From Bifidobacterium sp. WK012_4_13 (GTDB lineage: Bacteria; Actinomycetota; Actinomycetes; Actinomycetales; Bifidobacteriaceae), in assembly GCF_041080835.1 (NCBI RefSeq), contig NZ_CP129683.1, forward strand, positions 1,922,001 to 1,986,000: a stretch of DNA of 64,000 nucleotides, in the 5' to 3' direction. Under the pieces are notes generated by a model, which made no database searches, was not told the DNA's origin, and saw only the letters and a list, made by a program, of their open reading frames with translations. Of the stretch, positions 3,964-62,607 are shown one piece after another. The position numbers and the translations under genes are program-made. Positions within the stretch are counted from its first letter, which is position 1. Each line of letters starts with the position of its first letter.

Positions 3964-4084
3964 CGAGATTCCGAGTTTTGCGGCAATTGCGAAGTATCAG
4001 CCTCGATTTTTGGCTTTTCCTCGTCGAGAATTCAACGATTGTTTGCCCTTATACTTCGCAATTGCCGCAAAACTCGGAATCTCG
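3964..4084 (+). repeat. Dispersed inverted-repeat element, copy 1 (arm type A)
   Basis: Two 34-bp arms (3964-3997 and 4051-4084) are perfect inverted repeats around a 53-bp spacer. The arm core is CGAGTTTTGCGGCAATTG. The spacer holds a smaller hairpin (CTCGA 4002-4006 with TCGAG 4024-4028) and the core TTTTTGGC...GTCGAGAATTCAACGA shared with other copies. It lies between the convergent ino1 and glf genes. There is no ORF, and it is not a standard terminator because no T-run follows the stem. Confidence 0.9.
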
Positions 4085-4120
4085 GAATTCAACGCCTGCA
4101 TTGAGCGCATGATTGGGCAG

Positions 4121-5287
4121 TCATTTCTTGAGAAGTGGCTGAACCTCGTTTTCGAATGAGTCGAGAGCCTTGTCGATCACCTGATGCATGTCGTAGTAAG
4201 CATAGGTTCCGAGCCGACCGCCGAAGATGACCTGTGGCTCGGCAGCGACCTTCTCCCTGTATTGGGCATAGAGCTGCTTGTCTGCGGCGGTGCTCACAGG
4301 ATAGTATGGCTCGTCATTGCGTGAGGCGGAACGGGAGTACTCTTCCCACACGACCGTATGCTCATGGTTCTGCCGGTCATGGCGCTCGGGATTGAAATTC
4401 TTGAACTCGATGGCACGGGTGAATGGCACATCCTCGTCGGCATAGTTCATCACGGGGCATCCGAGATGATCGTCCTCGTCATAGCGCTTCTCCTTGAACT
4501 CGACGGTCTTCCATTGCAGGTCGCCGAGCTTGTAGTCGAAATATCTGTCGACGGGACCGGTATACACGATGGGAACCTTGCCGACGAGCGCATCGCGGTT
4601 GAGTGGCTGGCTCGTATCGAAGAAGTCGGTCGAAAGACTGACATGGATGCGAGGGTCATCGATCATCCGCTCGAACCACGCCGTGTAACCGTCGACTGGC
4701 AGACCTTCCCAGGTGTCCTTGAAATAGCGGTTGTTGTAGTTGAACCGCACGGGAAGCCTGCGAATGACCGATGCAGGCAGCGTGCTTGGATCGGTCTGCC
4801 ACTGTTTGGCCGTGTAGTTCTTGATGAATGCCTCATACAGTGGACGTCCGATGAGGCTGATGCCTTGGTCGTTGAGATTGTTGGGGGTGCTTCCCGCCAA
4901 TTCGCCCGCCTGCTCGGCCACGAGCCTTCTCGCCTCTTCCGGGGTGTAGCTGGCGTGGAAGAACTGGTTGATGGTCCCAAGGTTTATTGGCATGGGGAAG
5001 ACTTCGCCATTGTGTGTCGTGTACACATGGTGAACGTAATTCGTGAAGCTCGTGAATCGATTCACATATTTCCATACGCGGGGGTTGGAGGTGTGGAAGA
5101 GATGAGCGCCATACTTATGTATTTCGGCACCGGTCTGTTCGTCCATGTAGCTGTATGCGTTGCCGCCTATGTTCCCGCGAGCCTCGATTATCTCGACCCT
5201 GGCCCCTGTTCGTTCAACGGCCTGCTGCGCGATGGTCAGTCCGAAGAGCCCTGCACCAACGATGACGAGATCAGCTTGTTCGCTCAT
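4121..5287 (-). CDS. glf: UDP-galactopyranose mutase
   Basis: A flavoenzyme that interconverts UDP-galactopyranose and UDP-galactofuranose, feeding galactofuranose-containing envelope polysaccharides. The 388-residue product starts with an FAD dinucleotide-binding motif (VIVGAGLFGLT) and contains the family signatures YGAHLFHT, the N-x-P-x region (PMPINLGTINQFF) and the C-terminal GRLGTYAYYDMHQV. ATG at 5287 has a GGAAG ribosome site and begins at the FAD fold; the 28 residues encoded upstream are not used. No glycosyltransferases are adjacent, so it probably serves a distant polysaccharide cluster. Confidence 0.95.
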   Translation of the reverse strand: MSEQADLVIVGAGLFGLTIAQQAVERTGARVEIIEARGNIGGNAYSYMDEQTGAEIHKYGAHLFHTSNPRVWKYVNRFTSFTNYVHHVYTTHNGEVFPMPINLGTINQFFHASYTPEEARRLVAEQAGELAGSTPNNLNDQGISLIGRPLYEAFIKNYTAKQWQTDPSTLPASVIRRLPVRFNYNNRYFKDTWEGLPVDGYTAWFERMIDDPRIHVSLSTDFFDTSQPLNRDALVGKVPIVYTGPVDRYFDYKLGDLQWKTVEFKEKRYDEDDHLGCPVMNYADEDVPFTRAIEFKNFNPERHDRQNHEHTVVWEEYSRSASRNDEPYYPVSTAADKQLYAQYREKVAAEPQVIFGGRLGTYAYYDMHQVIDKALDSFENEVQPLLKK

Positions 5288-5428
5288 CTGCTTCCTTTCT
5301 CCTGTCGGATTTGGCATGGCGTCGTGGCCTTCTTCACGATGGTGTCCGAGAAGCTGCCATGCGCATGGCACTTCTCACATCGTAGCCGTGATCGCGAACC
5401 CTTGCACGAGAATGTTTTTGGTCTTGGA

Positions 5429-5457
5429 TTGGTAAAATCCAATCAGTCGGGTAGAAT
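5429..5457 (+). promoter_or_regulatory. Promoter of the SRP RNA
   Basis: TTGGTA (5429-5434) and TAGAAT (5452-5457) are separated by 17 bp and end 7 bp before the first paired base of the SRP RNA, the expected distance for a sigma-A type promoter. Confidence 0.65.
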
Positions 5458-5464
5458 ACCATTT

Positions 5465-5550
5465 GCTCCCACGTGGCGTTACGTCACCCAATCCCCCCAG
5501 GGCAGGAATGCAGCAAGGGTAAGTGGCCTCTGACGGGTACGTGGGAGTTT
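5465..5550 (+). ncRNA. ffs: Signal recognition particle RNA, small bacterial type
   Basis: The RNA scaffold of the signal recognition particle, bound by Ffh (encoded at 19139). The ends pair (GCTCCCACGT with ACGTGGGAG) and the apical domain carries the conserved asymmetric loop and tetraloop region CAGGGCAGGAATGCAGCAAGG. The length of about 85 nt fits the short 4.5S form. It is placed between glf and the PAP2 gene; the PAP2 start codon lies about 35 bp after its end, so read-through is possible. Confidence 0.88.
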
Positions 5551-5585
5551 TCATATTTTCATGTCCTACCCTTACAGTCGTGGGT

Positions 5586-6683
5586 ATGAGTGAATTCAAT
5601 GAAAAGTCAGACGACACGACACAGGCTGGTTCATACGGCGCCCCAGATGTCGGTCTCGTCGCAGATTCCGAGGATGCGACGCAGTCCAGTACCACGACGG
5701 GAATGGGACAGGAACCGGTCAGTCTTGCCTTTGGCATGGTTCACAAGGACCCGTTGACGGTTCGTCCACGCCGATCAAGCATCGTCATCTGCGCGTGCCT
5801 CGGCGTCGCAGCCCTGATTCTCAGTGCATGCCTGTGGCTCTTTGCGGTGCGTACGGTGACCGGACAGGAATACGACGATATGGTTTGGAGCCATTTCTCG
5901 CAGATCCTTCCCTCCTGGTTCATCGACGTGCTGAGCATATTCGTGAAAACCTATGTTGACATCGCGGTCGTCGTGGTGTTCTCTCTTGTCGCAGTCATCG
6001 TCAATGTCGTCAGAAGACGCTGGCTGCTGCTGGTGCAGCTTGCGGTGTTCGGGATGCTCTGCTTTGCCGTGGCGGCGACGGTGAAGCGTGTGCTGCCCAG
6101 ACCTTTCCTGGTCAACGTGGCATCGTACAAGTCCAATTCCGCCCCATCGGGGCACACCCTGATGGCAGCTGCTGGAGCGGTGGTTCTCATATGCGCTGTC
6201 CCAAGGGTATGGCGCGCCGTCGCTGCCCTGATCGGGTGGGCATTCACGTTCCTGGTGGCGCTTTCGGTCGTTCAGGCCCAGTGGCATCGCCCCTCGGATC
6301 CGATCATGTCGATGCTCATCGTCGCGGGCTTGGCATTCATCATGCTCGCATTCACCCGTGCAAGTGGCATGGACGAACCCGGTACGCGCATGTCCTCGGC
6401 GAGCATACAGATCGTCGCCACGGTTATGATAACTGCTGGTATCGTGGCTGTGCTCTATGGCGGCTATGTATTCTGGCAAATCGAGCCCGGATTGGACCTC
6501 AGCGCCCAATGGGCGCGCTCTGGTGCATGTGCCGCGGCTTTTGCGCTTATGCTGGGGGTATCTCTGGTGACATTCGGAACGGTAGCCGCGCTGAGGCAGC
6601 TCACGGCATCTCCTCTGAGCAAGCTGGGGTTGATCGGCGCTCCACCCGAACCTCCGAAGCCATCAGAAGAACGCAATGACTGA
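5586..6683 (+). CDS. PAP2-family membrane phosphatase
   Basis: A multi-pass membrane phosphatase, probably acting on a lipid phosphate such as undecaprenyl pyrophosphate or phosphatidylglycerophosphate; the substrate cannot be told. The 365-residue protein has the three acid-phosphatase motifs: KRVLPRP, PSGHT and a C-terminal QAQWHRPSD with the catalytic His. About six hydrophobic segments surround them and two more follow at the C-terminus. The ATG at 5586 is chosen because the upstream extension overlaps the SRP RNA. It is followed by topA after about 100 bp. Confidence 0.85.
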   Translation: MSEFNEKSDDTTQAGSYGAPDVGLVADSEDATQSSTTTGMGQEPVSLAFGMVHKDPLTVRPRRSSIVICACLGVAALILSACLWLFAVRTVTGQEYDDMVWSHFSQILPSWFIDVLSIFVKTYVDIAVVVVFSLVAVIVNVVRRRWLLLVQLAVFGMLCFAVAATVKRVLPRPFLVNVASYKSNSAPSGHTLMAAAGAVVLICAVPRVWRAVAALIGWAFTFLVALSVVQAQWHRPSDPIMSMLIVAGLAFIMLAFTRASGMDEPGTRMSSASIQIVATVMITAGIVAVLYGGYVFWQIEPGLDLSAQWARSGACAAAFALMLGVSLVTFGTVAALRQLTASPLSKLGLIGAPPEPPKPSEERND

Positions 6684-6785
6684 ACCGACAGCCACGTTCG
6701 ACACGGGCAAACGCGAATGCCTTTTGGCTTATGTGTTTCCCTTATGAGTATGATTGCGTGCGTTGGACACGGTAAGGAGATCAAG

Positions 6786-9758
6786 ATGGCAACCGGCAGA
6801 AAGCTCGTAATCGTTGAGTCGCCGACCAAAGCCAAGAAGATAGGCGGATATCTTGGCGATGGCTACACCGTCATGGCGTCAGTGGGTCATATTCGTGATC
6901 TCGCCCAGCCTTCTCAGGTTCCTTCGGCTGACAAGGGCCATTTCGGCAAGTTCGGCGTGGACGTCGACGACGATTTCAAGCCGTATTACATCGTCGATGG
7001 CAACAAGAAGAAGACGGTCGCCGAATTGAAGAAGGCATTGAAGACCGCCGACGAGCTCTACCTCGCAACCGATGAGGATCGCGAGGGGGAGGCCATCGCG
7101 TGGCATCTGGTCCAGACCCTGAAGCCAAAGGTTCCCGTGAAACGCATGGTGTTCCACGAGATCACACGTGATGCGATCCATGCATCCCTGAACAAGACAC
7201 GCAACGTTGACGACAACATGGTGGATGCGCAGGAGACGCGTCGCGTGCTGGATCGGCTCTATGGCTATGAGCTTTCCCCTGTCCTGTGGCGCAAGGTCGG
7301 CCCCGGTCTGAGTGCGGGTCGCGTGCAGTCGGTCGCGACACGACTGATCGTCGAGCGCGAGCGAGAGCGCATGGCCTTCGTTCGCACGGCGTATTGGGAT
7401 GTCGTGGCCACGCTGGTGACCAAGGATGCGCAGGCCACTCCGTTCCCAGCGCGTCTGGTCGAGTTGGATGGGCGCCGGGTGGCCGGTTCCAAGGATTTCG
7501 ACGATCAGGGCAACCCCACGGACGCGGCGAAAAAAGACGATGCGATGCGCATTGACGAGACGACTGCGCGCGAAATCGCGGCAGAGCTCAAATCCGCTGA
7601 CTTCACCGTCACGGGTCTGGACACGAAGCCATACCGCCGTCGCCCTCAGCCGCCGTTCACGACCTCGACCTTGCAGCAGACCGCTGGAAACCGTCTGTCC
7701 ATGAGCTCAAGAAGCACGATGCGTGCCGCTCAGGGACTGTACGAGAACGGATACATCACCTATATGAGAACTGACTCGGTCACGCTCTCACAGGAGGCGA
7801 TCGAGGCGGCCCGCGATGATGTCTCCAAGCGCTATGGCAAGGAATATCTCTCAGAGAAGCCGAAGCAATACACGACCAAAACCGCTGGCGCACAGGAGGC
7901 TCACGAATGCATTCGTCCTGCCGGCGCGCATTTCAGGTCTCCGGATGAGCTGGCTTCGCTGCTTCCTCCTGACCAGCTGAGGCTCTATACGCTGATCTGG
8001 CGTCGGACACTTGCGTCTCAGATGGCAGATGCCACCGGATCCACCGCAACCGTGCACATGCAGGCTCCGTCAGCGGGCCATGGAATCGCACACTTCCAGG
8101 CTTCGGGCACGGTGATAGCGTTCCTTGGCTTCATGAAGGCACTTGGGGAAGGCAACGGATCGCGCAACCAGAGGAACAAGGGCGAAAAGCATCAGGAGGA
8201 GTCTTCGAATGTCGCTTTGCCGCAGCTGGATCGTGGCGATGTTCTGAATGCCGATGACGTCGTGCCCGATGGGCATGAGACGCAGCCTCCGGCGCGCTAT
8301 ACCGAGGCGACCTTGGTCAAGACCCTGGAGGCGCGTGAGATAGGCCGTCCTTCGACCTATGCGAGCATCATCTCGACGATCATCGACCGTGGGTATGTCT
8401 ATGAACGCGGACGAGCGCTGATTCCATCATGGCTTGCATTCTCGGTCATCAAGCTGCTGGAAGGCAACTTCCCGCAATACGTCGATTACCGTTTCACCGC
8501 GCAGATGGAAAATGGACTCGACATGATCGCCCACGGCAAGGAAAAGGGCAAGGACTGGCTGACCGATTTCTATTTCGGCGCTGGCGAGAATTCCGCGAAG
8601 ACCACGTCGCAGATTCATGATGGCCTGCAGAAGCAGGTTGCTCAGCTCGGTGACATAGATGCCCGCGCCATCAACACCATCACGATCGGTGACGGACTAC
8701 AGGTTCGCGTCGGACGCTATGGCCCCTATCTTGAGGACACGGTGAACACCGATGATGAGGGGAATCCGAAGCGGGCCTCTTTGCCAGAGACGGTCGCTCC
8801 GGATGAACTGACCATCGAAAAGGGACATGAGCTTATCGCCACCAACGCGGGAGGACCTCGCGAGCTGGGCGAGGATCCCGAGACCCATGGCAAGGTCGAG
8901 GTCCGCAAGGGCCGTTTCGGTCCATACGTCGCGTTGACCCTGCCTGAGCAAGAGACCGACGAGGCCAAGGCTCCCACGAAGTCGAAGACGGCCGCAAAGG
9001 CGCGAACATCGAAGAAAGCCGCTGCAGCCAAGCCCAAGATGGCATCCCTGTTCAAGACCATGGATCCGGAGACCATCTCTCTCGACGACGCATTGAGATT
9101 GCTGAGGCTTCCACGCGTCGTCGGAGAAGTGGAAGAGACCGACGAGAAGACGGGCGAGGTCTTTTCGGCCACGATTCAGGCCAGCAATGGCCGCTATGGC
9201 CCCTATCTGACCAAGTCGCTGCCCGATGGCAAAAGCGATACGCGCTCGCTTGCCGGCGAGGACGAAATATTCACCGTCGATCTTGACAAGGCCAAGGAAC
9301 TCTTCGCCCAGCCCAAATATGGCAATCGCAGGCGTGGGGGCGCAAAGCCGCCGCTGCGTGAGCTCGGCCCCGATCCGGACAATGGCAAGGCCGTCACCAT
9401 CAAGGATGGCTTCTACGGAGCCTACATCACCGATGGCGAGACCAACAGGACGTTACCGAAGCAATACACACCTGAATCAATCGAGCCTGCGCAGGCATTC
9501 GCGTTGCTTGCAGAAAAGCGCGCAGCGGGCCCAGCCAAGAGACGAGGCTCATCGCGCAAGGGCACGACGCGCAAGACCGCCACCAAGAAGACGCCGACAA
9601 GGAAAGCCTCCACCAAGACAACGAGGAGCAAGACAACGAGGAGCAAGACAACGACGAGCAAGTCAAAGACGGCAGCGTCAAAGGGCACGGCAGCCAAGGC
9701 GAAGCCCTCTCGCCGAGCTAGGCAATCCGTTGCCGAAAGTCAAGTGAAGGAAGCATGA
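6786..9758 (+). CDS. topA: DNA topoisomerase I
   Basis: A type IA topoisomerase that relaxes negative supercoils by single-strand passage. The 990-residue protein has the Toprim acidic motif ([15 protein letters not shown]), the active-site tyrosine in [10 protein letters not shown], and four C-terminal repeats with the pattern GRYGPY (near 8712, 8910, 9189 and, degenerate, 9408). It has no zinc fingers and ends in a Lys/Thr/Ser-rich tail made of [11 protein letters not shown] micro-repeats, as in other actinobacteria. The start is set by AAGGAGATCAAG before ATG 6786. Its last four bases overlap the tmk start, so topA, tmk and holB are probably co-transcribed. Confidence 0.97.
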
Positions 9759-10609
9759 ACGGACTTTTCATATCATTCGAAGGCGTTGATGGCTCCGGCA
9801 AGACAACGCAGATTCAACGGCTGAATGCATACGTCATGGCCCAGGGGCGCAACGCCCTGGTAACCAGGGAACCAGGCGGAACATCCGCGGGTCTGGTCAT
9901 TCGCGAGCTGCTGCTGCACGGCATCGCCTCATTCCCTTCGCTCGCGGTTCTTGGAGCTTCGGACGTGGTCGAGCATGGATCGGATCTGAACGACAAGGCC
10001 GAAGCCCTGCTGTATGCCGCTGACAGGGCGCAGCATGTGGACGAGGTCATCCGACCGGCTCTGGAACGCGGGGATGTGGTGCTGTGCGACAGATACGTGG
10101 ATTCCTCGTTGGCCTATCAGTCAGGTGGCAGGGAGCTTCGGAACTCGAAGATCCTTGATATCAGTACTTGGGCGACCGACGGGCTGATGCCCCGACGCAC
10201 CTATTTGCTGGATATGGATCCCGCCGTATCGCACAAGCGGCTCGAACATCAGCTCGACCGCATCGAGGTGGAGGGCGCTGGCTTCCAGAACCGTACCCGG
10301 GAGCGTTTTCTCGAGTTGGCGCAGAACGATCCAGAGCGGTATCTCGTCATCGACGCGAATCAGTCCGTCGAAGATATCTGGCAGATCATTCAGACCGATT
10401 ACGACGCCTTGGTTGCTGGGGATACGGTTGCTGGAGATACAGTCGCTGGCGATGGAGCTGCCAGCGCTGCGGATGCCGATGCCGATGCGGATGCCGGTAT
10501 CGATGGGGATGAGACAGCCGATTCCCAGCTGAGAACGGATCCGGCTCCGCAGATGCAAGATGAGCCGCAGCCAAGGCAAGGCATTCAGCATGCCGAGGTC
10601 GGCGAGTGA
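9755..10609 (+). CDS. tmk: Thymidylate kinase
   Basis: Phosphorylates dTMP to dTDP for DNA synthesis. It shows the P-loop [12 protein letters not shown], the TREPGGT motif and the [11 protein letters not shown] motif. The catalytic part ends near residue 212; the last 70 residues are acidic and contain GDTVA repeats and a run of alternating Asp-Ala, which is not needed for the family fold. It overlaps topA by 4 bp and holB by 4 bp, implying translational coupling. Confidence 0.95.
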
Positions 10610-11829
10610 GTGTCTGGGATTCCATAGTCGGCCAGCAGCCCACTGTGGACATGCTGAGCAGGCTGGCGGAGCTTTCCGCGCTTGATCGCAGCGCTTCCAG
10701 TGATAGAAGCGATTCCAGTGATCGCAGTCCACAGGAGGCAGACAGGGAGCATCATGGGCTTGCTCAGTCGTGGCTGTTCTGCGGGCCTCCGGGATCTGGT
10801 CGTTCGAATCTCGCCCGCGCCTTCGCTGCCGCCCTGGAAAGTCCCGATCATGGCATGGGCGAGACTGCCAGCAATGTGACCAGGCAGGTTCTGGCAGGGA
10901 CGCATCCTGATGTGACGGTGCTTTCGACCGACAAGGTCACCATCGGCATCGAGGAGGTACGCGGGCTGATAGCCCAGTCCGAGCAGATGCCAAGCACCGC
11001 TCCATGGCGCATCATCATCATCGAGGATGTCGACCGCATGCTCGAACGTACGACGAACGTATTGCTCAAGGAAATCGAGGAGCCTGCGGAGCATGCAATA
11101 TGGATCCTGTGCGCGCCAAGCCCGCAGGACGTGCTGCCGACGATTCGCTCGCGATCGAGAACCGTCAATCTTGCGGTCCCATCGCAGGCTGCAGTCGCCA
11201 GATTCATTCAGGAAAGTACCGGCGCCGACGAGCATGTCGCTGCAAGGGCTTCCCGTCTGGCTGAAGGGCATATCGGAATAGCTCGCCTGTATGCGACCAA
11301 TGAGCGCGTCATGAGCGACAGGGATGACCTGATAGTGGGAGTTCTTGGCATGGAGCGTACCTCCGATGCGGTTTTGCTCGCTCAGGGGCTCATCGACAGC
11401 GCTCAGGGTCAGGCTCAGGAAGAGGTCGAATCCCAGGTCGAGCGTGATGAGCGGGACTTTCGACGGATCAATGGTCTTGACGAAGGGGAGCGGCTCCCAT
11501 CTGAGCTGCGTTCGGCCTTCCATGCCATAGGCAAGAAGGATGATGTGCGCAGGCGTATAACCCGCCGTTCACGTGACGTGCTTGACCGTGCGTTGAATTC
11601 CGTCGCGAGCATCTATCGAGATGTCGGAGTGCTTCAGAATGACGCCGAAGACTCGGCTGGATTGATCAATCTTGAGAACAGAAGCGCCATAACGGAACTC
11701 TCGATTCGGATTGACCGCAATCGGGCAGTCGCATGTCTGGAATTCATCGAGACCGCTCGGCGCAGACTCGCATCGAACGGCGCGCCTCTGCTCGTGTTTG
11801 AGGCGCTGTTCTCCGCACTTGTGCCATAG
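10606..11829 (+). CDS. holB: DNA polymerase III delta-prime subunit
   Basis: A clamp-loader ATPase-like subunit. It has [11 protein letters not shown] at the N-terminus, a P-loop ([11 protein letters not shown]; the usual Lys is replaced by Arg, as tolerated in delta-prime), a Walker-B-like [10 protein letters not shown] and the sensor region [16 protein letters not shown]. It starts with GTG and overlaps tmk by 4 bp. Residues 25-45 hold a Ser/Asp-rich micro-repeat ([11 protein letters not shown]). The stop codon lies inside a 14-bp tandem array (11818-11859). Confidence 0.93.
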
Positions 11830-11859
11830 AGCTTGTGCCATGGAGCTGGTGGCATGTAT
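11818..11859 (+). repeat. 14-bp tandem array across the holB stop codon
   Basis: Units CTTGTGCCATAGAG (11818-11831), CTTGTGCCATGGAG (11832-11845) and the diverged CTGGTGGCATGTAT (11846-11859). The first unit contains the TAG stop codon. One of five arrays in the window with the same 14-bp period placed on a stop codon. Confidence 0.8.
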
Positions 11860-11947
11860 CTTCTGACGCATATCCAGGCGATCGGAGCATGTTCACTTTC
11901 AGGTTGTCGGCATTGTCTGGCGAGGCACGGTGAGCGATACTGTATGC

Positions 11948-14211: not shown

Positions 14212-14223
14212 ATCTCTTGCGCG

Positions 14224-14340
14224 AGATTGGGAGTTTTGCGGCATTTTCAAAGTATCAAGCCGATTTTTTGGCTTCCTGGCGTCGCGATTTCAGGCTTTTT
14301 GCTCGCTTATACTGGTAAAATGCCGCAAAACTCGGAATCT
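14224..14340 (+). repeat. Dispersed inverted-repeat element, copy 2 (arm type A)
   Basis: Arms 14224-14255 and 14309-14340 (32 bp each) pair with a perfect 17-bp core GAGTTTTGCGGCATTTT plus matching ends; five mismatches lie on either side of the core. The spacer is 53 bp, the same length as in copy 1, and aligns with it along its length (GATTTTTTGGCTT then CGTCG). It starts 13 bp after the pepD stop codon and ends 26 bp before recG, so it lies in the recG leader. Confidence 0.88.
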
Positions 14341-14366
14341 GGGTTCGAAAAGCTTGAGGAGGAGCC

Positions 14367-16760: not shown

Positions 16761-16795
16761 AATAGTCGCGCTTTCGGGCCGAAACCGATCGAGGA

Positions 16796-16905
16796 TTCAA
16801 GTTTTTGGCACTTGTCTGAGTATCTCGGCTGTTTTTTGGCGCTATGCCGGTCGAATTTTCAACGAAAATGGAGCTTTCTACTCAGGCAAGTGCCAAAAAC
16901 TTGAA
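16796..16905 (+). repeat. Dispersed inverted-repeat element, copy 3 (arm type B)
   Basis: Arms 16796-16822 and 16879-16905 (27 bp) match at 26 positions; the odd pair is T opposite G, which would still pair as RNA. The arm core is TTCAAGTTTTTGGCACTTG, different from type A, but the 56-bp spacer keeps TTTTTTGGC and GTCGAATTTTCAACGA, which align with copy 1. It lies between convergent recG and the oxidase gene. Confidence 0.88.
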
Positions 16906-16982
16906 AGGTCATGACCCACAGTCATGAACATGAGGCATGAATATGGGCCGGAATCCGAGAACTCCGACCCACATCCATGACT

Positions 16983-29914: not shown

Positions 29915-29952
29915 CAATCGGGCATCTGGTTGATCGACCAGATGCCCGATTG
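29915..29952. terminator. Long hairpin after the second surface-protein gene
   Basis: A perfect 16-bp stem (29915-29930 with 29937-29952, CAATCGGGCATCTGGT arm) with a 6-nt loop starts 58 bp after the stop codon. No T-run follows, so it may be a terminator of weak form or a 3'-end stabiliser. Confidence 0.6.
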
Positions 29953-40373: not shown

Positions 40374-40374
40374 C

Positions 40375-46212: not shown

Positions 46213-46333
46213 CGACTTTCCGAGTTTTGCGGCAATTGCAATGTATAAAGCCTTGAAAGTGTTGATTTTCCGACGCCAATCTGCGAAAAATGTCCGCCGC
46301 TACTTCGAGATTGCCGCAAAACTCGGAAAGTCG
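46213..46333 (-). repeat. Dispersed inverted-repeat element, copy 4 (arm type A, inverted)
   Basis: Arms 46213-46245 and 46301-46333 (33 bp) match over the outer 24 bp (core CCGAGTTTTGCGGCAAT) and diverge near the spacer. The 55-bp spacer aligns with copy 1 only when reversed (GTTGATTTTCCGACG here), so it lies in opposite orientation. It is between the convergent amidotransferase and GH4 genes. Confidence 0.87.
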
Positions 46334-51186: not shown

Positions 51187-51198
51187 GGAGATATTCCA

Positions 51199-53078: not shown

Positions 53079-53090
53079 TATTTGAGCATC

Positions 53091-55121: not shown

Positions 55122-55134
55122 ATGAAGAGCAGAT

Positions 55135-55265
55135 GCCGATTTTTGTGGCCGGATCTAATCTGAATCGCCATTGTTGCGGTTTTTCGTTACGCCGCATCAA
55201 CGATCTCGACTGAGTTTTTTGCCAAGCAAGCCACAACAACCGGAATGTGCCGCAAAACCGGAGCT
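55135..55265 (+). repeat. Dispersed inverted-repeat element, degenerate copy
   Basis: GCCGATTTTTGTGGCC (from 55136) resembles the type-A left arm and GTGCCGCAAAACCGG (55247-55261) the right arm; between them CATCAACGATCTCGAC and TTTTTTGCC recall the core of copy 1. Arm pairing is imperfect, so this is a probable decayed relative. It starts about 14 bp after the ABC-F stop codon, between convergent genes. Confidence 0.5.
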
Positions 55266-55274
55266 TTGCGGCAC
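55247..55274. terminator. Hairpin between ABC-F and ilvN
   Basis: A 10-bp perfect inverted repeat, GTGCCGCAAA (55247-55256) with TTTGCGGCAC (55265-55274), 8-nt loop. It lies just past the ilvN stop codon between convergent genes; no long T-run follows. Confidence 0.45.
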
Positions 55275-55285
55275 TAAACCTTGAT

Positions 55286-55840
55286 TCAGCGGCCAGTGAC
55301 CGTCGAGCCGACGACCTTTTCGCTCAATGCCTTCGGTCCGCGCGTCATGGCGACGGATCCGGAACGTACCAGTTCGATGATGCCATAGTTCTGAAGCAGC
55401 CCAAGCAGCGCATCGAGCTTGCCGCCAGCGCCGGTCGCCTCAATCGTGAGCGATTCGGGATGCACGTCGACCACGCGCACGCGGAAGAGCTTCACTATCT
55501 CCAAGACGTCGGAGCGGTTGCGTTCGTTCGCCGAGACCTTGATCAGCACCAGCTCTCGCTCGACGGTGTTTTCTGGGTCGAGTTCGACGATCTTCAGCAC
55601 GTGCAGCAGCTTGTTCAGTTGCTTGATGACTTGTTCCAAAGGAACGGCCTCCACATCCGCCGTGACCGTGATGCGAGAGATGTCATCGCGTTCCGTCGGA
55701 GAGACTGAAAGCGAGTTGATGTTGAAGGCGCGGCGTGCAAAGAGTCCGGCAACGCGTGCGAGCACGCCTGGACGGTTCTCGACGAGCACGGAAAGCGTAT
55801 GGCGGCCTGAGCCAATCTGTGACACTGGATAATTCACCAT
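55286..55840 (-). CDS. ilvN: Acetolactate synthase small subunit
   Basis: The regulatory subunit of acetohydroxyacid synthase, binding branched-chain amino acids through an ACT domain (LSVLVENRPGVLARVAGLFARRAFNINS core) and a C-terminal ACT-like domain. It starts 9 bp after the ilvB stop codon. Confidence 0.95.
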   Translation of the reverse strand: MVNYPVSQIGSGRHTLSVLVENRPGVLARVAGLFARRAFNINSLSVSPTERDDISRITVTADVEAVPLEQVIKQLNKLLHVLKIVELDPENTVERELVLIKVSANERNRSDVLEIVKLFRVRVVDVHPESLTIEATGAGGKLDALLGLLQNYGIIELVRSGSVAMTRGPKALSEKVVGSTVTGR

Positions 55841-55849
55841 GATGTTTTC

Positions 55850-57817
55850 TCAGCCTTCATTCTTGGTTGTTGGCGTTGCAGCCTTGGGCAAGTCCGGCGC
55901 AGCCGCGGTCTCCGTGGCTTCTCCATCCTGATTGGGTGAGTAGCGCAGTGGCATCACGCCGGGCTTGTACATCACATCGTCGTTCGAACGTCCGGCCGGA
56001 ACCATCGGCCAGACCATCGCGTCCTTCCATACTCGGAAATCGATGATGACGGTGCGGTCATTCGTGGCGTTGGCGATGTCGATCGCTTCCAAGGCCTGCT
56101 CCTTGGTGAAGGCACGAATTCCCACGCAACCGTAAGCCTTCGCCAAAGTCACGAAATCAGGGATGTCCACGATGGAATCATCGTTCTCGGATGCGAGGCC
56201 ATCTTCAAGATTCGTCTTCGAGTAATGCTTCTCATAGAACAATGTCTGCCATTGACGAACCATGCCGTACACGGAGTTGTTCAGAATGGCGATCTTCAGC
56301 GGGGCGTGCTCGAAGAAGGCTACGGCCAATTCCTCGGAGGTCATCTGGAAGCTGCCATCGCCATCGATGAGCCATACTGGCTTTTTCCCGGCAAAGTCGC
56401 GCTGCGACCCGATTTCGGCTCCTATCGCTGCAGGAAGGCCGTATCCCATCGTTCCCAGGCCTCCTGAGGAGACCCATGTATGTGCCCGCTCGAAGTCAAT
56501 GATCTGGCTGGCCCACATCTGGTGCTGTCCGACGCCGGATACCCAGATGGTATCTGGAGAGGATTGCTTCGAAAGCTGTTCGACGACCCATTGAGGTGCC
56601 AGGCTCCCATCGGTCGGCTCGTCATAGCTCAGTGGGTAGCTCTCACTCCAGGCATCGATCGTCTTCCACCATGAATCCAGGTCGGGCTTTCCATGAACGC
56701 TCTGAAGACGTTCGATCTCGGGGATCAAGTCGTCCAGCACCTGGGACACGTCGCCGACGATCGGAACGTCCGCATAACGGTTCTTTCCGATCTCCGCGGG
56801 GTCGATGTCAATATGTATCACGCGTGCGGAAGGCGCGAATTCATCGACGTTGCCGGTTACCCGGTCGTCGAATCGAGCTCCGATGGCGACCAGCAGATCG
56901 CAGCGCTGCACCGCCGCGGTGGCTGCGACCGTGCCATGCATTCCCAGCATGCCAAGCACGGCATGATCCGAGTCGGGCACTATTCCACGCGACTGAAGCG
57001 TGGTGACGATTGGCGCACCAGTGAGCTCGGCAAGCTGCTTCACCTCTCGCGAGGCATCCGAGCGAACGGCGCCACCGCCGACATAGAGCACCGGACGATA
57101 CGAGGTGGTGAAAAGCTTGGCGGCATCGGTCAGCACATGGCCATGCGCCTTGGTCGTTGGGTTGTACCCTGGCAGGATCATGCGCTGTGGCCAGGAATAG
57201 TGCATCTCTCCTGTCTGCGCCGTCTTGGTGAGATCGACGACGACCGGACCGGGACGTCCCGATCTGGCAATGTAGAAGGCCTCTGTGAGCACGCGCGGAA
57301 TGTCTTCCGCATTGGTCACCAGAAATGAATGCTTGGCCACCGGGTATGTGATGCCGACGATGTCGGCCTCCTGGAATGCATCGGTGCCGATCGAAGAAAC
57401 ATTGACCTGTCCAGTGATCACCACGAGTGGGACGGAATCCATCATCGCATCCGCAATGGGCGTGACCATATTCGTCGCCCCGGGACCTGATGTGACCAGG
57501 CATACGCCAACGCGTCCGGTGGTGACGGCATATCCTTCCGCCGCATGACCTGCGGCCTGCTCGTGCCGAGACAGGATGAAACGGAATGCGGTGTCGTCGT
57601 GAATGGCGTCATAGGCTGGAAGAATGTATCCTCCCGGAATGCCGAAAACGTCCTTGACGCCTAAATCGACCAGCGAGCGTACCAGAGCCTGAGCTCCGGT
57701 CATCGTTTCGCCGTTTGCGGCTGTGCCGCTGGCGGGAGTCTTTGCTGATTGCTTGGCTGAATCGTCCGGGGTGTTGGGAACCCCACTGAATGCCTGTAGA
57801 GGCGTGGGCAAAACCAT
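55850..57817 (-). CDS. ilvB: Acetolactate synthase large subunit
   Basis: The ThDP/FAD catalytic subunit making acetolactate and acetohydroxybutyrate for valine, leucine and isoleucine. It shows GIPGGYILPAYDAI, the catalytic Glu in SRHEQAAGHAAEGYA, and the ThDP motif GDGSFQMTSEELAVAF. The first 38 residues are a Ser/Thr/Pro-rich extension. It is related to, but distinct from, the pyruvate oxidase at 17011. No leader peptide rich in branched-chain amino acids was seen upstream. Confidence 0.95.
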   Translation of the reverse strand: MVLPTPLQAFSGVPNTPDDSAKQSAKTPASGTAANGETMTGAQALVRSLVDLGVKDVFGIPGGYILPAYDAIHDDTAFRFILSRHEQAAGHAAEGYAVTTGRVGVCLVTSGPGATNMVTPIADAMMDSVPLVVITGQVNVSSIGTDAFQEADIVGITYPVAKHSFLVTNAEDIPRVLTEAFYIARSGRPGPVVVDLTKTAQTGEMHYSWPQRMILPGYNPTTKAHGHVLTDAAKLFTTSYRPVLYVGGGAVRSDASREVKQLAELTGAPIVTTLQSRGIVPDSDHAVLGMLGMHGTVAATAAVQRCDLLVAIGARFDDRVTGNVDEFAPSARVIHIDIDPAEIGKNRYADVPIVGDVSQVLDDLIPEIERLQSVHGKPDLDSWWKTIDAWSESYPLSYDEPTDGSLAPQWVVEQLSKQSSPDTIWVSGVGQHQMWASQIIDFERAHTWVSSGGLGTMGYGLPAAIGAEIGSQRDFAGKKPVWLIDGDGSFQMTSEELAVAFFEHAPLKIAILNNSVYGMVRQWQTLFYEKHYSKTNLEDGLASENDDSIVDIPDFVTLAKAYGCVGIRAFTKEQALEAIDIANATNDRTVIIDFRVWKDAMVWPMVPAGRSNDDVMYKPGVMPLRYSPNQDGEATETAAAPDLPKAATPTTKNEG

Positions 57818-58191
57818 GATTTCCTCTCACATAGATGTACGTGGAATTCGTACTCATGTCTAAATCGTATCGCGGGAATTTCAGCACCAGCATGGCTCCG
57901 GATCGTGGAACTCGTGATTCCAACGTATCTGCGCGAAGCCAGATGGCGCGCACTTTTGCATTCATCCTAGTGTAGGTGTCCGGACGTTGAAAATCGTTCA
58001 CGTGTCACATTGCGGATAACGTCAGCTCATGGGGAGCTCCAAAAGCCGAGGTAATTACAGCGAGATTCCGAGTTTTGCGGCAAATCGTGAGTATAAATGC
58101 CCCAAAACGGCTTTCTGGCGGTGCCAAATCAACGATTACAACACGTTATACTTCAGAATTGCCGCAAAACTCGGAATCTCGAATCAAACGA
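57818..58191. other. Region between ilvB and rnc
   Basis: This 374-bp non-coding stretch holds the presumed ilvB leader and promoter on the minus strand (57818-58060) and inverted-repeat copy 5 (58061-58181). No attenuator hairpin or leader peptide is obvious. Confidence 0.55.
58061..58181 (+). repeat. Dispersed inverted-repeat element, copy 5 (arm type A)
   Basis: Arms 58061-58094 and 58148-58181 (34 bp) agree over the outer 23 bp (CGAGATTCCGAGTTTTGCGG onward), then four mismatches and a matching AGTAT end. The spacer is again 53 bp and shares GGCTTTCTGGCGGT and AAATCAACGATT with the other copies. It ends 11 bp from the rnc stop codon. Confidence 0.88.
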
Positions 58192-59007
58192 TCATGATTG
58201 CGGCTGTTGCTGGCTCTTTTCTGCGTCCAAAAGCTTCCACGCAACCTCTGCCGCAGCCAACTGGGCCTTGCGCTTGCTGCTGCCCTCGGCACTGGCAAGA
58301 ATCTTGGGCGAATCGCCAAGCATGACCTCTGCAGTGAAGGTCTGCTGATATTCAGGGCCTGAAACCTTCATGCGGTAGTGAGGCTCGCCAAGATTCATAT
58401 GGTTTGCCTTCACTGTCAGCGAGGTTTTCCAGTCCAGAGCCGGACCTTCGGTCGCGACTTCCGCCAGGGTATCGTCAACGAGACGATGCACCACCTTGCG
58501 GCCACCTTCGATGCCATGCTCGACAAAAACCGCACCGATCAGCGCCTCGACGGTGTCGCAGAGAATGGAATCCTTGTCGGCGCCGCCGCTTGCGGACTCG
58601 CCGTGGCCAAGAAGGATGTATGGGCCCAGCTTCAACTTGGTTCGAGCGATTGCGGAAAGCGCCTCTTCCGATACGGCCTTTGCCCGCATCTTCGCGAGCT
58701 GCCCTTCGTTCATGTCAGGGTGAATCCTGAACAGTGTCTCCGTGGATACGAGCTCAAGCACCGCGTCGCCAAGGAATTCCAAACGCTCATTGTTTGGCAG
58801 TCCATGGTGCTCATTGGCAAAGGAACGATGGGTGAGCGCATGGACGAGAAGATCCGGACTCACCGGACTTCCCAAAGCTTCCAGCAGCTCATCCGGGCCA
58901 CTGGGGGCTTTCGGCTGGGAAGCCACGAAAGACGGGTTTCCGGTCGATGCAGAGGCCGTTTCGGATGCTGATTGGTTCGAGATTTCCTTGTGTTCCTGCT
59001 GAGACAT
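58192..59007 (-). CDS. rnc: Ribonuclease III
   Basis: A double-strand RNA endonuclease for rRNA and mRNA processing. It has the signature NERLEFLGDAVLELV with catalytic Glu/Asp, the second acidic cluster DTVEALIGAVFVEHG, and a C-terminal dsRNA-binding domain (LDWKTSLTVKAN... SSKRKAQLAAAEVA). The N-terminus has a 35-residue Ser/Ala-rich extension. It is last in the coaD-sepIVA-like-DUF177-rpmF-rnc order. An inverted-repeat element able to form a long RNA stem lies directly after its stop codon. Confidence 0.96.
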   Translation of the reverse strand: MSQQEHKEISNQSASETASASTGNPSFVASQPKAPSGPDELLEALGSPVSPDLLVHALTHRSFANEHHGLPNNERLEFLGDAVLELVSTETLFRIHPDMNEGQLAKMRAKAVSEEALSAIARTKLKLGPYILLGHGESASGGADKDSILCDTVEALIGAVFVEHGIEGGRKVVHRLVDDTLAEVATEGPALDWKTSLTVKANHMNLGEPHYRMKVSGPEYQQTFTAEVMLGDSPKILASAEGSSKRKAQLAAAEVAWKLLDAEKSQQQPQS

Positions 59008-59143
59008 GAATCCTCCTGAACGCGCAACGATTGAACGGCATATCGGTCAATCGTTCTGCGCGGATTGACGACCGACTGGACTTACTGGCTGAGTGACCGA
59101 AAACGACCTTTGGAGCAACTGTCATCAGCCATCGAAGAAACGA

Positions 59144-59173
59144 AAACCCCGCCACCCGTCGATGGCAGGGTTT
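59144..59173 (-). terminator. Terminator after rpmF
   Basis: On the minus strand AAACCCTGCCA pairs with TGGCGGGGTTT and is followed by TTCGTTTC. The stem is 10-11 bp (59144-59154 with 59163-59173). It suggests rnc has its own promoter or receives reduced read-through. Confidence 0.65.
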
Positions 59174-59198
59174 CATTGATGAGCCTGAACGCTCCTCA

Positions 59199-59393
59199 TT
59201 ACTTGCTGAAGACTGATTTCACCGCATCCTGATAGACGCGGCCGCGGAATGAACCGCAGCTTGGGCAAGCCATGTGTGGCAGCGTCGCTGCGCCGCAATT
59301 CGGGCAGGTGACGGTCTGTGTTGCCGATGCTTTCCAGTTGGCGCGACGCGAATGAGTGTTTGCGCGCGAAGTCTTATACTTTGGCAGTGCCAT
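59199..59393 (-). CDS. rpmF: 50S ribosomal protein L32
   Basis: A 64-residue basic protein with the zinc-binding four-cysteine pattern (CPNCG ... CPSCGSFRG), so the zinc-containing C+ form. The conserved start [11 protein letters not shown] fixes the ATG. In the usual order it follows the DUF177 gene. Confidence 0.96.
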
Positions 59394-59607
59394 AATTTCC
59401 TCTATTTCGATTAATCTACATAGCTTAAGCGTTCAGTATCTTAGCGCATGGTGCTGATTTTGTCATCTTATGACAATGCGCGCTTGTCATGAGCACAAAT
59501 CAGCCGAAGAAGTCTGCTGGCCGGTCCTGGTACGAGGCACATGAAGATGTTCAGATGCTGTTCGAACTGAGACATGCAGCCAGTGCCAGTCAGCCGTCAA
59601 CCAGTCG
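59394..59607. promoter_or_regulatory. Gap between the DUF177 gene and rpmF with nested inverted repeats
   Basis: The genes are normally tightly linked, but here 214 bp part them. Around 59451-59504 lie TTGTCAT-CTT-ATGACAA (59460-59476), a third TTGTCAT (59484-59490) and outer arms GCTGATTT (59453-59460) / AAATCAGC (59497-59504). They may form an operator or RNA structure before rpmF. Confidence 0.35.
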
Positions 59608-60237
59608 CTAGTCCGTCGCGTCGTCGCCTTTGTCTTTCAACTGATCGCTGAGCCCTGCGAGACCCGCCCATCGAATGTCGGTGACGTCATGGTGATGATC
59701 CGGATTATCGTTCAGATTGATGCCGCATTGGGGGCAGAGTCCTTGGCAATCCTCTTCGCACAATGGTTGCAATGGCAGTGATTCGACGAGATTGTCGCGG
59801 ACAAGGGCCTCGACGTCGGCATATGCGGAACCGGCCGAAAGCGGATAGGTGTCCTCTGCCTCGTCTTCCTCAGCGATGATGTCGATGTCGCCATGCTTGT
59901 CTGCCGGGGTTGACCGCGAAGCGCCGCGTCCTGCAACGTCGGAATTATATGGAAAGAATGCCATCGCATTGACATGCCAATCCTTGGATATCGGCTTGAG
60001 GCAGCGGATGCATTCTGCATGGACGGGTGCAACGATCAGTCCGTTGAATATGAGTCCGTCGGCAATCGAGTCGAAGCTACCCTCAACATGCACGTCGGAG
60101 CCCTCTTCGACGCCTATGATTCCATCTCCGATGCCGCTTGGCGCAGGGCAATCAAGGTCGACCGACTTGCTCTGCCCCGCCCTGCTGGCAACCTGTGCCA
60201 CGGGAATCGACCAAGGTGAATCCTCTGGTCTACTCAT
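59608..60237 (-). CDS. DUF177 (YceD-family) protein
   Basis: A 209-residue protein of the family linked to 23S rRNA maturation and encoded with rpmF. It carries the cysteine pattern CIRC (usual CxRC) and the terminal CEEDCQGLCPQCG. ATG 60237 has GGAG upstream; an in-frame start at 60270 is unlikely. It follows the SepIVA-like gene by 50 bp. Confidence 0.9.
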   Translation of the reverse strand: MSRPEDSPWSIPVAQVASRAGQSKSVDLDCPAPSGIGDGIIGVEEGSDVHVEGSFDSIADGLIFNGLIVAPVHAECIRCLKPISKDWHVNAMAFFPYNSDVAGRGASRSTPADKHGDIDIIAEEDEAEDTYPLSAGSAYADVEALVRDNLVESLPLQPLCEEDCQGLCPQCGINLNDNPDHHHDVTDIRWAGLAGLSDQLKDKGDDATD

Positions 60238-60287
60238 ATCATTCTCCTCTGCTGCCGCTGCAAGCTGCATGGTGTTCGAGAATCAGC

Positions 60288-61325
60288 TCACTGATTCTGC
60301 TGGGATTGCTGAGACTGCTGCTGAGCCTTCTGCTGCCGTTCATCAAGGACCCTCAGTCCCGCCTGCACATCCTGCTGAATCTTGTTGAGTTGCTCGTCCA
60401 GGTCATTCATCACTCTGATGGAATAGCGATCAGCTCCCTGAGAGAGTGTAGACGCCTTCGAGCGTGCCGTGTCAAGAATGACCTTCGCCTTCTGTTCCGC
60501 GATGGCGACCACATTCTCTTGACCGGCAAGAAATTGCGCCTGCTCCTTGGCTTCGCGGACGGTGTCGGCGGCCCTGCTCTGAGCGCTTGCAATGATTGCG
60601 TTCGCCTGAGTTCTGGCATTCTGCAATCTGCGCTCTGACTCTCGCATCAGGGCAGATGCACGTTCAAGCTGAACCGGCAGCATCTTTTTCAGTTCCACTA
60701 TGCTGTTGGAGAACTCATTCTTGTCGATTTTCACCACCCCGGGCGTGAACAGCCCGGCCTTGGCTTCGTCCAGACTCTGCTGCATAGCGTCGATGATGTC
60801 ATAGACCGTGGTGAATTCGGCATGCGATGAATCTTCGTCACCGTCATCAAAAGACTGGCCGCCATGGCGTTCGCTCATATCGGGCAGCGAATCTGGAGAG
60901 AAGAGCGGTTGAGCGTTCTGCTTGGAATCCGCGTATGACGCGGAGTTGACTGCAGCCGCGGGAACGAACCCCGTCGCCTCATTGTCGGCATCTTCATTGT
61001 CGGCGACTTCATCGTTGGTCACCTCACTCTGTCTGCGATAGGCGGCGTAGGGGTCCTTGGTGGATTCGCCGCGCTGGGCTGAGCTGCTCGACGCTGGGGC
61101 GGGACGCGGCATCGGCGAAGGTTCAACGGAATCGTGATTGGGTTCGTCTTCTTGGTCTGCTGGGGAAGTTGAGTCTGAAGATTTACCAGCAGCCTGTGGC
61201 ACCTGAGGAGCCTGAGGAGCGACGCTCCCGTCGGCTGACACGGCGAAGCTGCGCACTTCCGATTCGCCCGTGTCGTCGTCCATCGCGCTGCCATGCAAGT
61301 CATTGTTCTCTGTGTTGTCTGTCAT
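60288..61325 (-). CDS. DivIVA/SepIVA-like septation protein
   Basis: The C-terminal 210 residues are a continuous coiled coil with [40 protein letters not shown] and [19 protein letters not shown], as in mycobacterial SepIVA, which lies in the same place next to the DUF177 gene and rnc. The first 135 residues are acidic, disordered and Pro/Ser-rich. It is expected at the septum or in lateral envelope growth, by homology and position only. It overlaps coaD by 4 bp. Confidence 0.82.
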
Positions 61326-61819
61326 ATTGAACTCTTTTCACCGTTAAGTGCTCGACGCAGCATGGCCACGACGCAATCGGGAACCATGCCGGTAACATCG
61401 CCACCATGTCTGGCGACATCCTTGACGATGGAGCTGGAAATGTGCTCCCTCACCGGATCCGCCGGAAGAAACAGCGTCTCAACGTTGGAGAGCTTTCGAT
61501 TCACCAGAGCCATCCCCAACTCGGCCTCGTAATCGCCATTCTGTCGTAATCCCTTCACGATAACCGAAGCACCCACATGCATGCAATAATCGGTTATCAA
61601 TCCGCTGGTGGCGACAACCTTGATTTTCGAGTATCCATCGTCGTCCAAAGCCCTTCGAATCATCAGAACGCGCTCCTCGTCGGTGAAGAGCGGCGTCTTT
61701 GCCGCATTCGCGGCCACGACGACGTGAACCTCGCAGAAAAAGTTGCTGCATCGTTCGATAACATCCATATGTCCCGATGTCACGGGGTCATATGAGCCTG
61801 GGCACACTGCAATAGTCAT
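61322..61819 (-). CDS. coaD: Phosphopantetheine adenylyltransferase
   Basis: Makes dephospho-CoA from ATP and 4'-phosphopantetheine. It has the nucleotidyltransferase motif [34 protein letters not shown] and [19 protein letters not shown] 61819 begins at the fold; the extra 29 upstream residues are not conserved. It overlaps the SepIVA-like gene by 4 bp. Confidence 0.96.
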
Positions 61820-61944
61820 ATGAAACAGAGTAGCGCGTTTGGCGCATTCACGGTGCATGATGAAACCGCGTGGTCCGAGAGTCATATGAGATTTCTCTTG
61901 CAGCATGAGGTGTTCCCCATGGAATTGCTTCTAAGATGGTAGGC

Positions 61945-62277
61945 ATGAGCATGATGAACGAGCGGATGAGCAAGCGAGAGAACAGCCCCTTGCGGATAAT
62001 GAACGAGGAAGGCGAATCGCCTCTTTCCGATCCTGACCAGTCCACTGGGACCGCGGTCCTGGAACGTCCTGAGACCAAGGAAGAGACGAGGCAGTCCGAT
62101 GACGGCGATGCGGACAGATTCGCCCATTATGTTTCGAGAGAGCGCATCGCTGAATCGCGAATGACCGGAAGGCCGGTGGTTGCGCTGTGCGGCAAGGTGT
62201 GGGTGCCGAAGCACGACCCGTCGCAGTATCCGGTCTGCCCGGATTGCAAGCGCATATATGAGGAGATGCGCCGCTGA
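61945..62277 (+). CDS. DUF3039-family protein
   Basis: A small actinobacterial protein of unknown function. The conserved part is DRFAHYVSRERIAESRMTGRPVVALCGKVWVPKHDP, with three cysteines that could bind zinc (ALCG, PVCPDCKRIYE). The first 45 residues are acidic. Start 61945 is a choice among four close ATGs. It is divergent from coaD. Confidence 0.85.
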   Translation: MSMMNERMSKRENSPLRIMNEEGESPLSDPDQSTGTAVLERPETKEETRQSDDGDADRFAHYVSRERIAESRMTGRPVVALCGKVWVPKHDPSQYPVCPDCKRIYEEMRR

Positions 62278-62607
62278 GTCCTCGTTTTCAGTGCAGACTG
62301 GTCGACGAATGGAGCGGGCTTGCAAGTTTTTGGCACTTCCTCAGGTATGCAAGCTGACTTTCGGCCTAATCGCGCGCATTCGTTCGCGTCCTTTAGCGGC
62401 TTTTGGATTTCTATACTTGAGGAAGTGCCAAAAACTTGAAGATTCGTCCCTCTGCTGCCGTTCGCCATCATGGTAACCGGGGATTCTCAGCAAGGCGTGC
62501 GCATCAGAGCCATGGCCGGGTCGGCTGACGGAGCATTCGGGTCGGCTGCCCTGCAGGTCTCTGAATCACTCAGCGTCGATTACTCAGCATCGATCACTCA
62601 GTGTCGA
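62278..62607. other. Convergent region with inverted repeat and tandem array
   Basis: This 330-bp region contains inverted-repeat copy 6 and most of the 14-bp array of the aldo/keto reductase. The 62439-62565 part shows nothing recognisable, apart from GTCGGCTG repeated at about 62519 and 62541. Confidence 0.55.
62323..62438. repeat. Dispersed inverted-repeat element, copy 6 (arm type B)
   Basis: Arms 62323-62348 and 62413-62438 (26 bp) match at 25 positions; the exception is G opposite T, still a pair in RNA. The arm core CAAGTTTTTGGCACTT equals that of copy 3, then both arms share a different inner part (CCTCA). The 64-bp spacer does not clearly align with the others, so orientation is unknown. 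It lies between convergent DUF3039 and reductase genes. Confidence 0.85.

What the first reader, a model, noticed from the sequence alone, without database searches (positions are those of the whole stretch)
3964..62438. A family of intergenic inverted-repeat elements (110-121 bp) behind gene ends
Seen: six clear copies (3964-4084, 14224-14340, 16796-16905, 46213-46333, 58061-58181, 62323-62438) and one decayed copy (55135-55265). Arms are 26-34 bp and close to perfect; spacers are 53 bp in three copies and 55-64 bp in the others, with a shared interior TTTTTGGC...GTCGA-AATTCAACGA in the clearest ones. Four begin or end 11-14 bp from a stop codon and four of the six lie between convergent genes. 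They carry no ORF and no T-run, so they are neither classical terminators nor insertion sequences. Possible roles: non-autonomous mobile element (MITE), REP-like nucleoid or gyrase site, or a structured RNA protecting mRNA 3' ends. I know of no named family with this sequence, but cannot search.
Basis: partly seen in the sequence, partly recalled or inferred. Interest (0 to 1): 0.85.

Follow-up and report, generated by a model that had tools for sequence, protein, structure and literature searches.

The report
Paired DNA words with matched nuclease
About a hundred 121-base palindromes scattered behind genes in this Bifidobacterium look like one half of a two-part system not found in the searches made here: each well-studied palindrome type has a nuclease-like gene sitting between two copies of it, and both differ together between species.

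Summary
They do not behave like RNA hairpins or ordinary MITEs. Each element is two inverted ~15-bp words whose outer edges lie 101-105 bp apart (242 of 252) or about one helical turn further (112-115 bp, 10 of 252). Another genome shows ~10-11-bp steps. G.U mismatches do not exceed A.C, so selection is probably on DNA. Many copies sit at orthologous sites, yet both arms can switch word together between species.

The partner is a ~280-aa protein with a Vsr/EDxHD-type nuclease fold. All 7 strong genes in the genus lie between two elements carrying one word. Blind test: the G024 gene is bracketed by an unrelated word that then proved to occur 198 times in that genome and 0-2 times in 25 of the other 26. 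Homologues in the family also sit by long palindromes: 26 of 26, then 12 of 20 at a preset threshold, versus 14 of 200 control genes.

It resembles REPIN-RAYT with a different enzyme. Binding, cutting and copying are inferred.

The parts
3964..4084 (+). Element copy 1, word class A (left word 3973-3988, right word 4060-4075 on the - strand), between convergent genes
   Evidence: orthologous copy in G006 at 542413, lone left arm remaining in G005
14222..14342 (+). Element copy 2, class A variant, between codirectional genes
   Evidence: orthologous copy in B. aquikefiri with both arms in class B
16790..16911 (+). Element copy 3, class C, between convergent genes
   Evidence: no element at the aligned site in B. 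aquikefiri
46213..46333 (-). Element copy 4, class A, between convergent genes
58061..58181 (+). Element copy 5, class A, between codirectional genes
62315..62446 (+). Element copy 6, class C, with about one extra helical turn of spacing (word starts 99 bp apart)
55135..55265 (.). Possible decayed copy, not established, between convergent genes
   Evidence: 15.9 bits, E 0.15; gene calls

Best explanation
The window elements are the dispersed half of a two-part, DNA-level system. Each element carries two inverted copies of a ~15-bp word about ten helical turns apart, with a conserved AAGTATA-type motif inside each word and, in about half of the copies, a CGTTGAAATT motif near the centre. The other half is a gene for a ~280-aa protein with an N-terminal part that varies more and a C-terminal Vsr/EDxHD-type PD-(D/E)XK nuclease domain; the gene sits between two elements of one class. 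SHOWN: the elements, the near-fixed helically stepped spacing, shared sites between species, coordinated change of both arms, the bracketing, and its success in a blind test. INFERRED: the protein binds both words of an element at once and nicks or cuts there, and the repair that follows copies elements or rewrites their arms. The elements would so be maintained and converted towards the protein's current word, while selection leaves them where they do least harm, behind genes. This is the strategy of REPIN-RAYT with a different enzyme and a double-stranded, helically phased substrate.
Against: G016 has 132 words but no such gene was found, even with the profile. G006 has an abundant class A, and G005 classes A2 and B, with no gene of that class found, and those words are no more decayed than classes with a gene: either a protein reads several words or something else maintains them. 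Four of the six own element pairs closer than 1.6 kb enclose something other than the nuclease gene. In four other genomes the bracketing word was not dispersed in samples of 58-120 kb. 8 of 20 loci failed the preset palindrome test, including both from outside the family, and 10 of the 20 came from genomes already used. No clean insertion or target duplication was seen, so copying is not demonstrated. Foldseek's own E-value for the fold match is weak (0.014) and Pfam matches lie under the curated cut-offs. Nothing here tests binding or cutting.
Confidence: 0.65

Rival explanations
1. Chromosome or transcription-boundary sites: the protein is a DNA-binding organiser with a repurposed nuclease domain that bridges the two words behind genes to insulate transcription units or fold the chromosome; nothing is copied, and words co-evolve with the protein by selection at fixed sites.
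For: Sites shared between species while interiors diverged; of 255 copies 90 are convergent and 12 divergent, median 25-52 bp from 3' ends against about 187 bp from 5' ends; near-fixed spacing.
Against: 42 of 50 own class-C copies have no orthologous copy among those found, so sites appear to come and go; acidic active-site residues are invariant in 46 aligned homologues; bracketing of the gene itself is not explained.
Confidence: 0.18
2. Classical MITE: deletion derivative of a transposon whose conventional transposase acts on the ends.
For: Near-constant length, inverted ends, high copy number.
Against: All 81 exact word-A cores fall in ~121-bp elements; no target duplication noticed in flanks or in the site comparisons printed; interiors diverged to near random while length stayed; words unrelated in sequence share one layout.
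Confidence: 0.06
3. Structured RNA at mRNA 3' ends (stability element or terminator).
For: The stem covaries: 19 of 34 pairs change on both sides, score 0.236 against 0.082 shuffled, 0 of 500 shuffles; location behind genes.
Against: No excess of G.U over A.C in the sense strand (199 to 221; 120 to 139); helical steps in what would be the loop; no T-run after the six window copies.
Confidence: 0.06
4. The arm symmetry is a mutational by-product (template switching in a quasi-palindrome) and the gene neighbourhood is incidental.
For: The variable arm bases match within a copy more than between copies (last four: 0.55-0.65 against 0.35-0.39), in a strand-symmetric way. This process may well contribute.
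Against: Explains neither genome-wide words, nor 7 of 7 bracketing, nor the blind prediction.
Confidence: 0.05

Closest known systems
REPIN-RAYT (REP elements with a REP-associated tyrosine transposase)
   Same: High-copy intergenic palindrome pairs; a cognate gene often flanked by the repeats; repeats that persist; genomes with repeats but without the gene (PMC8049555 and PMC3733652, passages seen)
   Different: No Y1/HUH transposase found in this genome; no GTAG-tagged short palindromes; the protein has a Vsr/EDxHD nuclease fold; two words at helically stepped spacing
TIRtrons (tyrosine transposases flanked by other inverted repeats; PMC3733652, passages seen)
   Same: Gene flanked by inverted repeats that can form a repeat family
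   Different: The enzyme is again a tyrosine (HUH) transposase
EDxHD homing endonucleases (I-Bth0305I) and Vsr
   Same: Fold of the C-terminal domain; I-Bth0305I is reported to dimerise on a target of nearly 60 bp (PMC3943268, passages seen)
   Different: Free-standing chromosomal gene with up to about 100 dispersed paired sites; activity untested
DUF559 / MTES_1575 proteins
   Same: C-terminal similarity (protein C: E 6e-4 and 3e-5)
   Different: Below the curated cut-offs; the listings show no paper linking DUF559 with such palindromes
ERIC/IRU and Correia elements (recalled, not compared here)
   Same: Intergenic imperfect palindromes of about 100-150 bp
   Different: No bracketed nuclease-like gene or helical spacing that I recall

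Membership tests
REPIN-RAYT | Cognate Y1/HUH tyrosine transposase | tested here: not met
   PF01797: 0 matches in the own genome; the same search rings in 5 of 14 control genomes. Not searched in G005 or G006.
REPIN-RAYT | Short GTAG/CGTC-tagged REP palindromes as units | tested here: not met
   By inspection of the arms printed (output of 40 was cut); no systematic scan
REPIN-RAYT | Cognate gene flanked by the repeats | tested here: met
   7 of 7 strong genes, though with another enzyme
MITE | Terminal inverted repeats and near-constant length | tested here: met
MITE | Target-site duplication or clean empty site | tested here: inconclusive
   None noticed by eye in the 12-base flanks of 42 own copies or in the 12 of 18 site comparisons printed; species are far apart, no strain comparison was possible
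MITE | Related autonomous transposon with the same ends | tested here: not met
   No longer element with exact A-word ends in the own genome; 19 of 77 exact C words are unpaired
Intrinsic terminator | Hairpin followed by a T-run | tested here: not met
   No T-run after any of the six window copies; a few other copies have one by position
Structured RNA | Wobble pairs tolerated in the transcribed strand | tested here: not met
   GU 120, AC 139 in codirectional contexts
EDxHD/Vsr nuclease fold | Fold of the catalytic domain | tested here: met
EDxHD/Vsr nuclease fold | Conserved acidic active-site residues | tested here: met
   E172, D205, E216 and D232 of own protein A invariant in 46 sequences; the FH histidine in 7 of 7; that these are the catalytic residues is by family knowledge
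EDxHD/Vsr nuclease fold | DNA cleavage | not testable with these tools
   needs purified protein
DUF559 / MTES_1575 | Score above the curated cut-off | tested here: not met
   Protein C: 20.1 against 20.6 and 24.4 against 38.2 bits; the other five proteins are also below

The most novel reading that the evidence does not exclude
A previously undescribed kind of chromosomal drive: a Vsr-like nuclease that recognises two helically phased words, copies its ~100-bp paired-word site around the genome and rewrites existing sites to its current word when its specificity changes, so that dozens of fixed sites change in step with one protein. The gene-plus-palindrome pair is widespread in Bifidobacteriaceae, with outbreaks to about 100 copies in some lineages.
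Probability: 0.45. Interest if true: 0.95.

Novelty: categorically new. Interest (0 to 1): 0.9.

Why it matters
The dispersed bacterial palindromes with a cognate enzyme that I found described (REP/REPIN, TIR) are tied to HUH tyrosine transposases. Here an unrelated nuclease fold has a matched palindrome family, which suggests this lifestyle arose more than once. The system is unusually readable: the word is written on both sides of the gene and in up to about a hundred places in the genome, so specificity could be read from sequence, and natural variants (words A, B, C, E, H and the G024 word) are ready pairs for testing how protein and DNA co-evolve. It offers a testable role for part of the large, mostly uncharacterised DUF559/MTES_1575-like group.

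Tried and rejected
RNA structure: strong covariation first pointed to a structured RNA. Dropped because G.U and A.C mismatches are about equally common in the sense strand and the spacing moves by helical turns.

RAYT: no Y1 transposase in this genome. Phage or plasmid origin: no match of copy 1 among 50,697 phage and 72,556 plasmid records and no exact match of one class-A arm pattern in IMG/VR; other classes were not searched there.

Terminator role: terminator-like sites are rare by my criteria, 5-10% of gene ends without an element and 1-7% beside one, so the test says little. Just upstream of elements they are somewhat more common than in shuffled sequence (6-7% against 1%).

Decay of classes without a gene: predicted, not found. 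Dispersal of the bracketing word in four other genomes: not found in the stretches sampled. Gene in G016: not found. Weak homologues in G006 (L220) and G023 (L216) have hairpins with another word on the 3' side.
Full report
WHAT IS THERE. The window is bases 1922001-1986000 of a 2.43-Mb contig in a genome labelled G000. The nearest named relative fetched is Bifidobacterium aquikefiri (78% amino-acid identity over a 797-aa gene). The six clear elements of the finding are confirmed. A covariance model built from 34 copies of this genome finds 95 distinct copies on the main contig (counted), a lower bound because only 150 candidates were scored; three more class-C word pairs appeared. Among 27 genomes of the genus held, two others are also rich: G006 with 82 copies and G005 with 78 (counted). 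G005 is B. aquikefiri: its contig C15 has the length of NZ_MWXA01000006.1 and the same element. G006 is probably B. aquikefiricola: a protein of that name lies on a contig of G006's length. Three other genomes had one hit each at E 0.0016-0.0033, which I take as chance.

ANATOMY. An arm reads [outer word, 15-16 bp][3-4 variable bases][AAGTATAAAC], and two arms face each other. Words fall into classes: own A GAGTTTTGCGGCAATT and C AAGTTTTTGGCACTT with near variants; G006 A, B GAGTTTTGTTGCCTTT and E GTTCATTGTGAACTT; G005 A2 GAGTTTTGTGGCAATT, B, E, F and H TTATTTTGCGGCCTG. In the own genome no copy mixes A with C: of 95, 43 are A/A, 50 C-type on both sides, one A/B2 and one A/A3. The variable bases match within an element more than between elements (0.55-0.65 against 0.35-0.39 over the last four). 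All 81 exact occurrences of the 13-base A core lie in listed elements. Of 77 exact C words 58 are in pairs and 19 unpaired.

IT ACTS AS DNA. From outer edge to outer edge of the words the distance is 101-105 bp in 242 and 112-115 bp in 10 of 252 copies, with none outside these ranges (3 of 255 copies left out because a word was not recognised). The model favours its own length, so the unbiased check matters: exact words alone give 85-89 or 98-99 bp start to start in 66 of 66 pairs within 5 kb. A CGTTGAAATT motif (8 of 10 bases or better) is in 119 of 242 copies against 9 of 242 with shuffled interiors; it sits 37-39 bp from a word in 97, 28-29 in 12, 49-50 in 8 and elsewhere in 2. In transcribed orientation, codirectional copies have 120 G.U and 139 A.C mismatches in the arms (199 and 221 over a wider stretch), so wobble pairs in RNA are not favoured and the covariation of the arms (19 of 34 pairs changed on both sides) is strand-symmetric.

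WHERE THEY SIT. Of 255 copies 90 lie between convergent, 137 between codirectional and 12 between divergent genes, and 16 at the edge of a stretch. None overlaps a called gene by more than 40 bp. Medians are 25-52 bp to 3' ends and about 187 bp to 5' ends (genes called by my own script). With both flanks homologous there are 104 orthologous pairs: 33 G000-G006, 28 G000-G005, 43 G006-G005; a few count one site twice, where two elements stand close. At least one orthologous copy exists for 41 of 95 own copies, 56 of 82 in G006 and 51 of 78 in G005; 42 of 50 own class-C copies have none. Interiors at shared sites are only a little more alike than random pairs (0.64-0.68 against 0.59-0.60), yet words persist, or both arms change class. 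Of 15 G006-G005 pairs with A/A in G006, 12 have A2-type words (A2/A2, A2/A4 or A2/A3) in G005. In G006 493404 versus G005 C15:94883 the interiors are very similar while both arms switch from A-type to B words. Of 18 candidate sites lacking a listed copy in one species, 12 were printed: one holds a lone arm (G005, window copy 1), one an element the model had missed, and none shows a clean insertion.

THE PARTNER GENE. Two close pairs of own elements enclose genes for homologous proteins (54% identical): 2052100-2052924 between two A elements, and 563990-564835 between two C elements. Four other own pairs closer than 1.6 kb enclose something else. In G006 one such gene lies between B elements and one between E elements; in G005 one between H elements (whose two sides differ at 2 of 12 bases) and one between E elements. 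The search of 27 genomes found 7 strong genes in four genomes plus two weak matches; all 7 are bracketed on both sides. The fourth genome, G024, had no match to the model, so it was a blind test. Its gene is bracketed by palindromes with an unrelated word. That word, TTTGTGTAGGGATT with up to one mismatch, then proved to occur 99 times on each strand of G024, 67 and 65 times in G016 and 0-2 times in each of the other 25 genomes; the reversed-pattern control gave 0-2. The 34 G016 pairs that I took from that (incomplete) list have start-to-start distances 76 (1), 85-86 (8), 96-98 (23) and 107-108 (2). Two G016 element sites are orthologous to G024 element sites, one pair with spans 110 and 101 bp, the other 111 and 111; a third shared site has outward-facing words in G016.

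HOW FAR IT REACHES. With a profile of the seven proteins 206 of 299 relatives have a match. The 26 loci returned from other genomes of the family (L255-L280, one per genome) all have a palindrome of 75-160 bp span scoring 13 or more within 600 bp of the gene, against 5 of 200 random windows and 1 of 26 for stretches further away in the same loci; that threshold was chosen. In 20 more loci with the threshold fixed, 12 of 18 inside the family and 0 of 2 outside it passed; 10 of the 20 came from genomes already used. Control genes of 200-450 aa passed in 14 of 200. Five of the first 26 are bracketed on both sides by one word; the swapped-flank control gave 8 of 150, some perhaps from flanks of the same class. 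Stretches of four of those genomes (58-120 kb each) held no inverted pair of the bracketing word, so high copy number looks lineage-specific.

HOW IT PROBABLY WORKS. Shown: matched words on gene and elements, stepped spacing, shared sites, joint switching. Inferred: the N-terminal part reads the word; two proteins bind the two words of an element on one face of the helix; the nuclease domain nicks or cuts there; repair copies the element elsewhere or rewrites an arm from the other arm or another element. When the protein's preference shifts, old sites are gradually rewritten; A/B-type mixed elements in G006 could be intermediates.

WHAT SPEAKS AGAINST. G016 has the words but no detectable gene. 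Class A in G006 and classes A2 and B in G005 have no gene found and are not more decayed. Copying has not been seen as a clean new insertion. A purely structural role, with the protein as organiser, is therefore kept as the main rival.

KNOWN OR NEW. The nearest known thing is REPIN-RAYT. Its defining enzyme was not found in this genome and the element layout differs, so I do not file it as a member, though it seems to live the same way. Ten literature searches listed no description of it, within an open-access library only. I rate it categorically new, with the caution that no biochemistry has been done.

Noticed in passing
window 5460-5556 (+): Bacterial small SRP RNA (Rfam RF00169, 55.8 bits); my gene call 5523-6683 overlaps it, so that gene's start is probably further in.
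   Followed up: no
window 3884-3926 and 29915-29952: Near-perfect short-loop hairpins (20 bp with a 3-base loop; 19 bp with no loop) that may be ordinary terminators.
   Followed up: no
L216:2135-2271 and L220:1414-1457: Weak homologues of the nuclease in G023 and G006 share a different hairpin word, CTCTACCTGCACATCTGA, just behind the gene; another related system, or only a terminator.
   Followed up: partly
L262, L264, L265 (genomes G111, G165, G175): Homologues in three genomes of another genus of the family share the palindrome word TCTGAGAGGCAG; not dispersed in the 100 kb of G111 sampled.
   Followed up: partly
G005 C16:100596-100716 and 100721-100818: A class-F and a class-H element stand 4 bp apart, at a site where G006 has a single class-A element.
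   Followed up: no
L239 (G016 C1:235402-235530): Two words of the G024 type face outwards about 100 bp apart; meaning unknown.
   Followed up: no
G000 C1:1776605-1778730: Three class-C elements about 1 kb apart enclose genes that look, from their first 60 residues only, like a short-chain dehydrogenase and a HigA-like antitoxin, so bracketing by elements is not unique to the nuclease gene.
   Followed up: partly
G126 C30:16377-17162: A strong nuclease homologue (E 8e-92) lies in a 633-aa open frame, perhaps a fusion.
   Followed up: no
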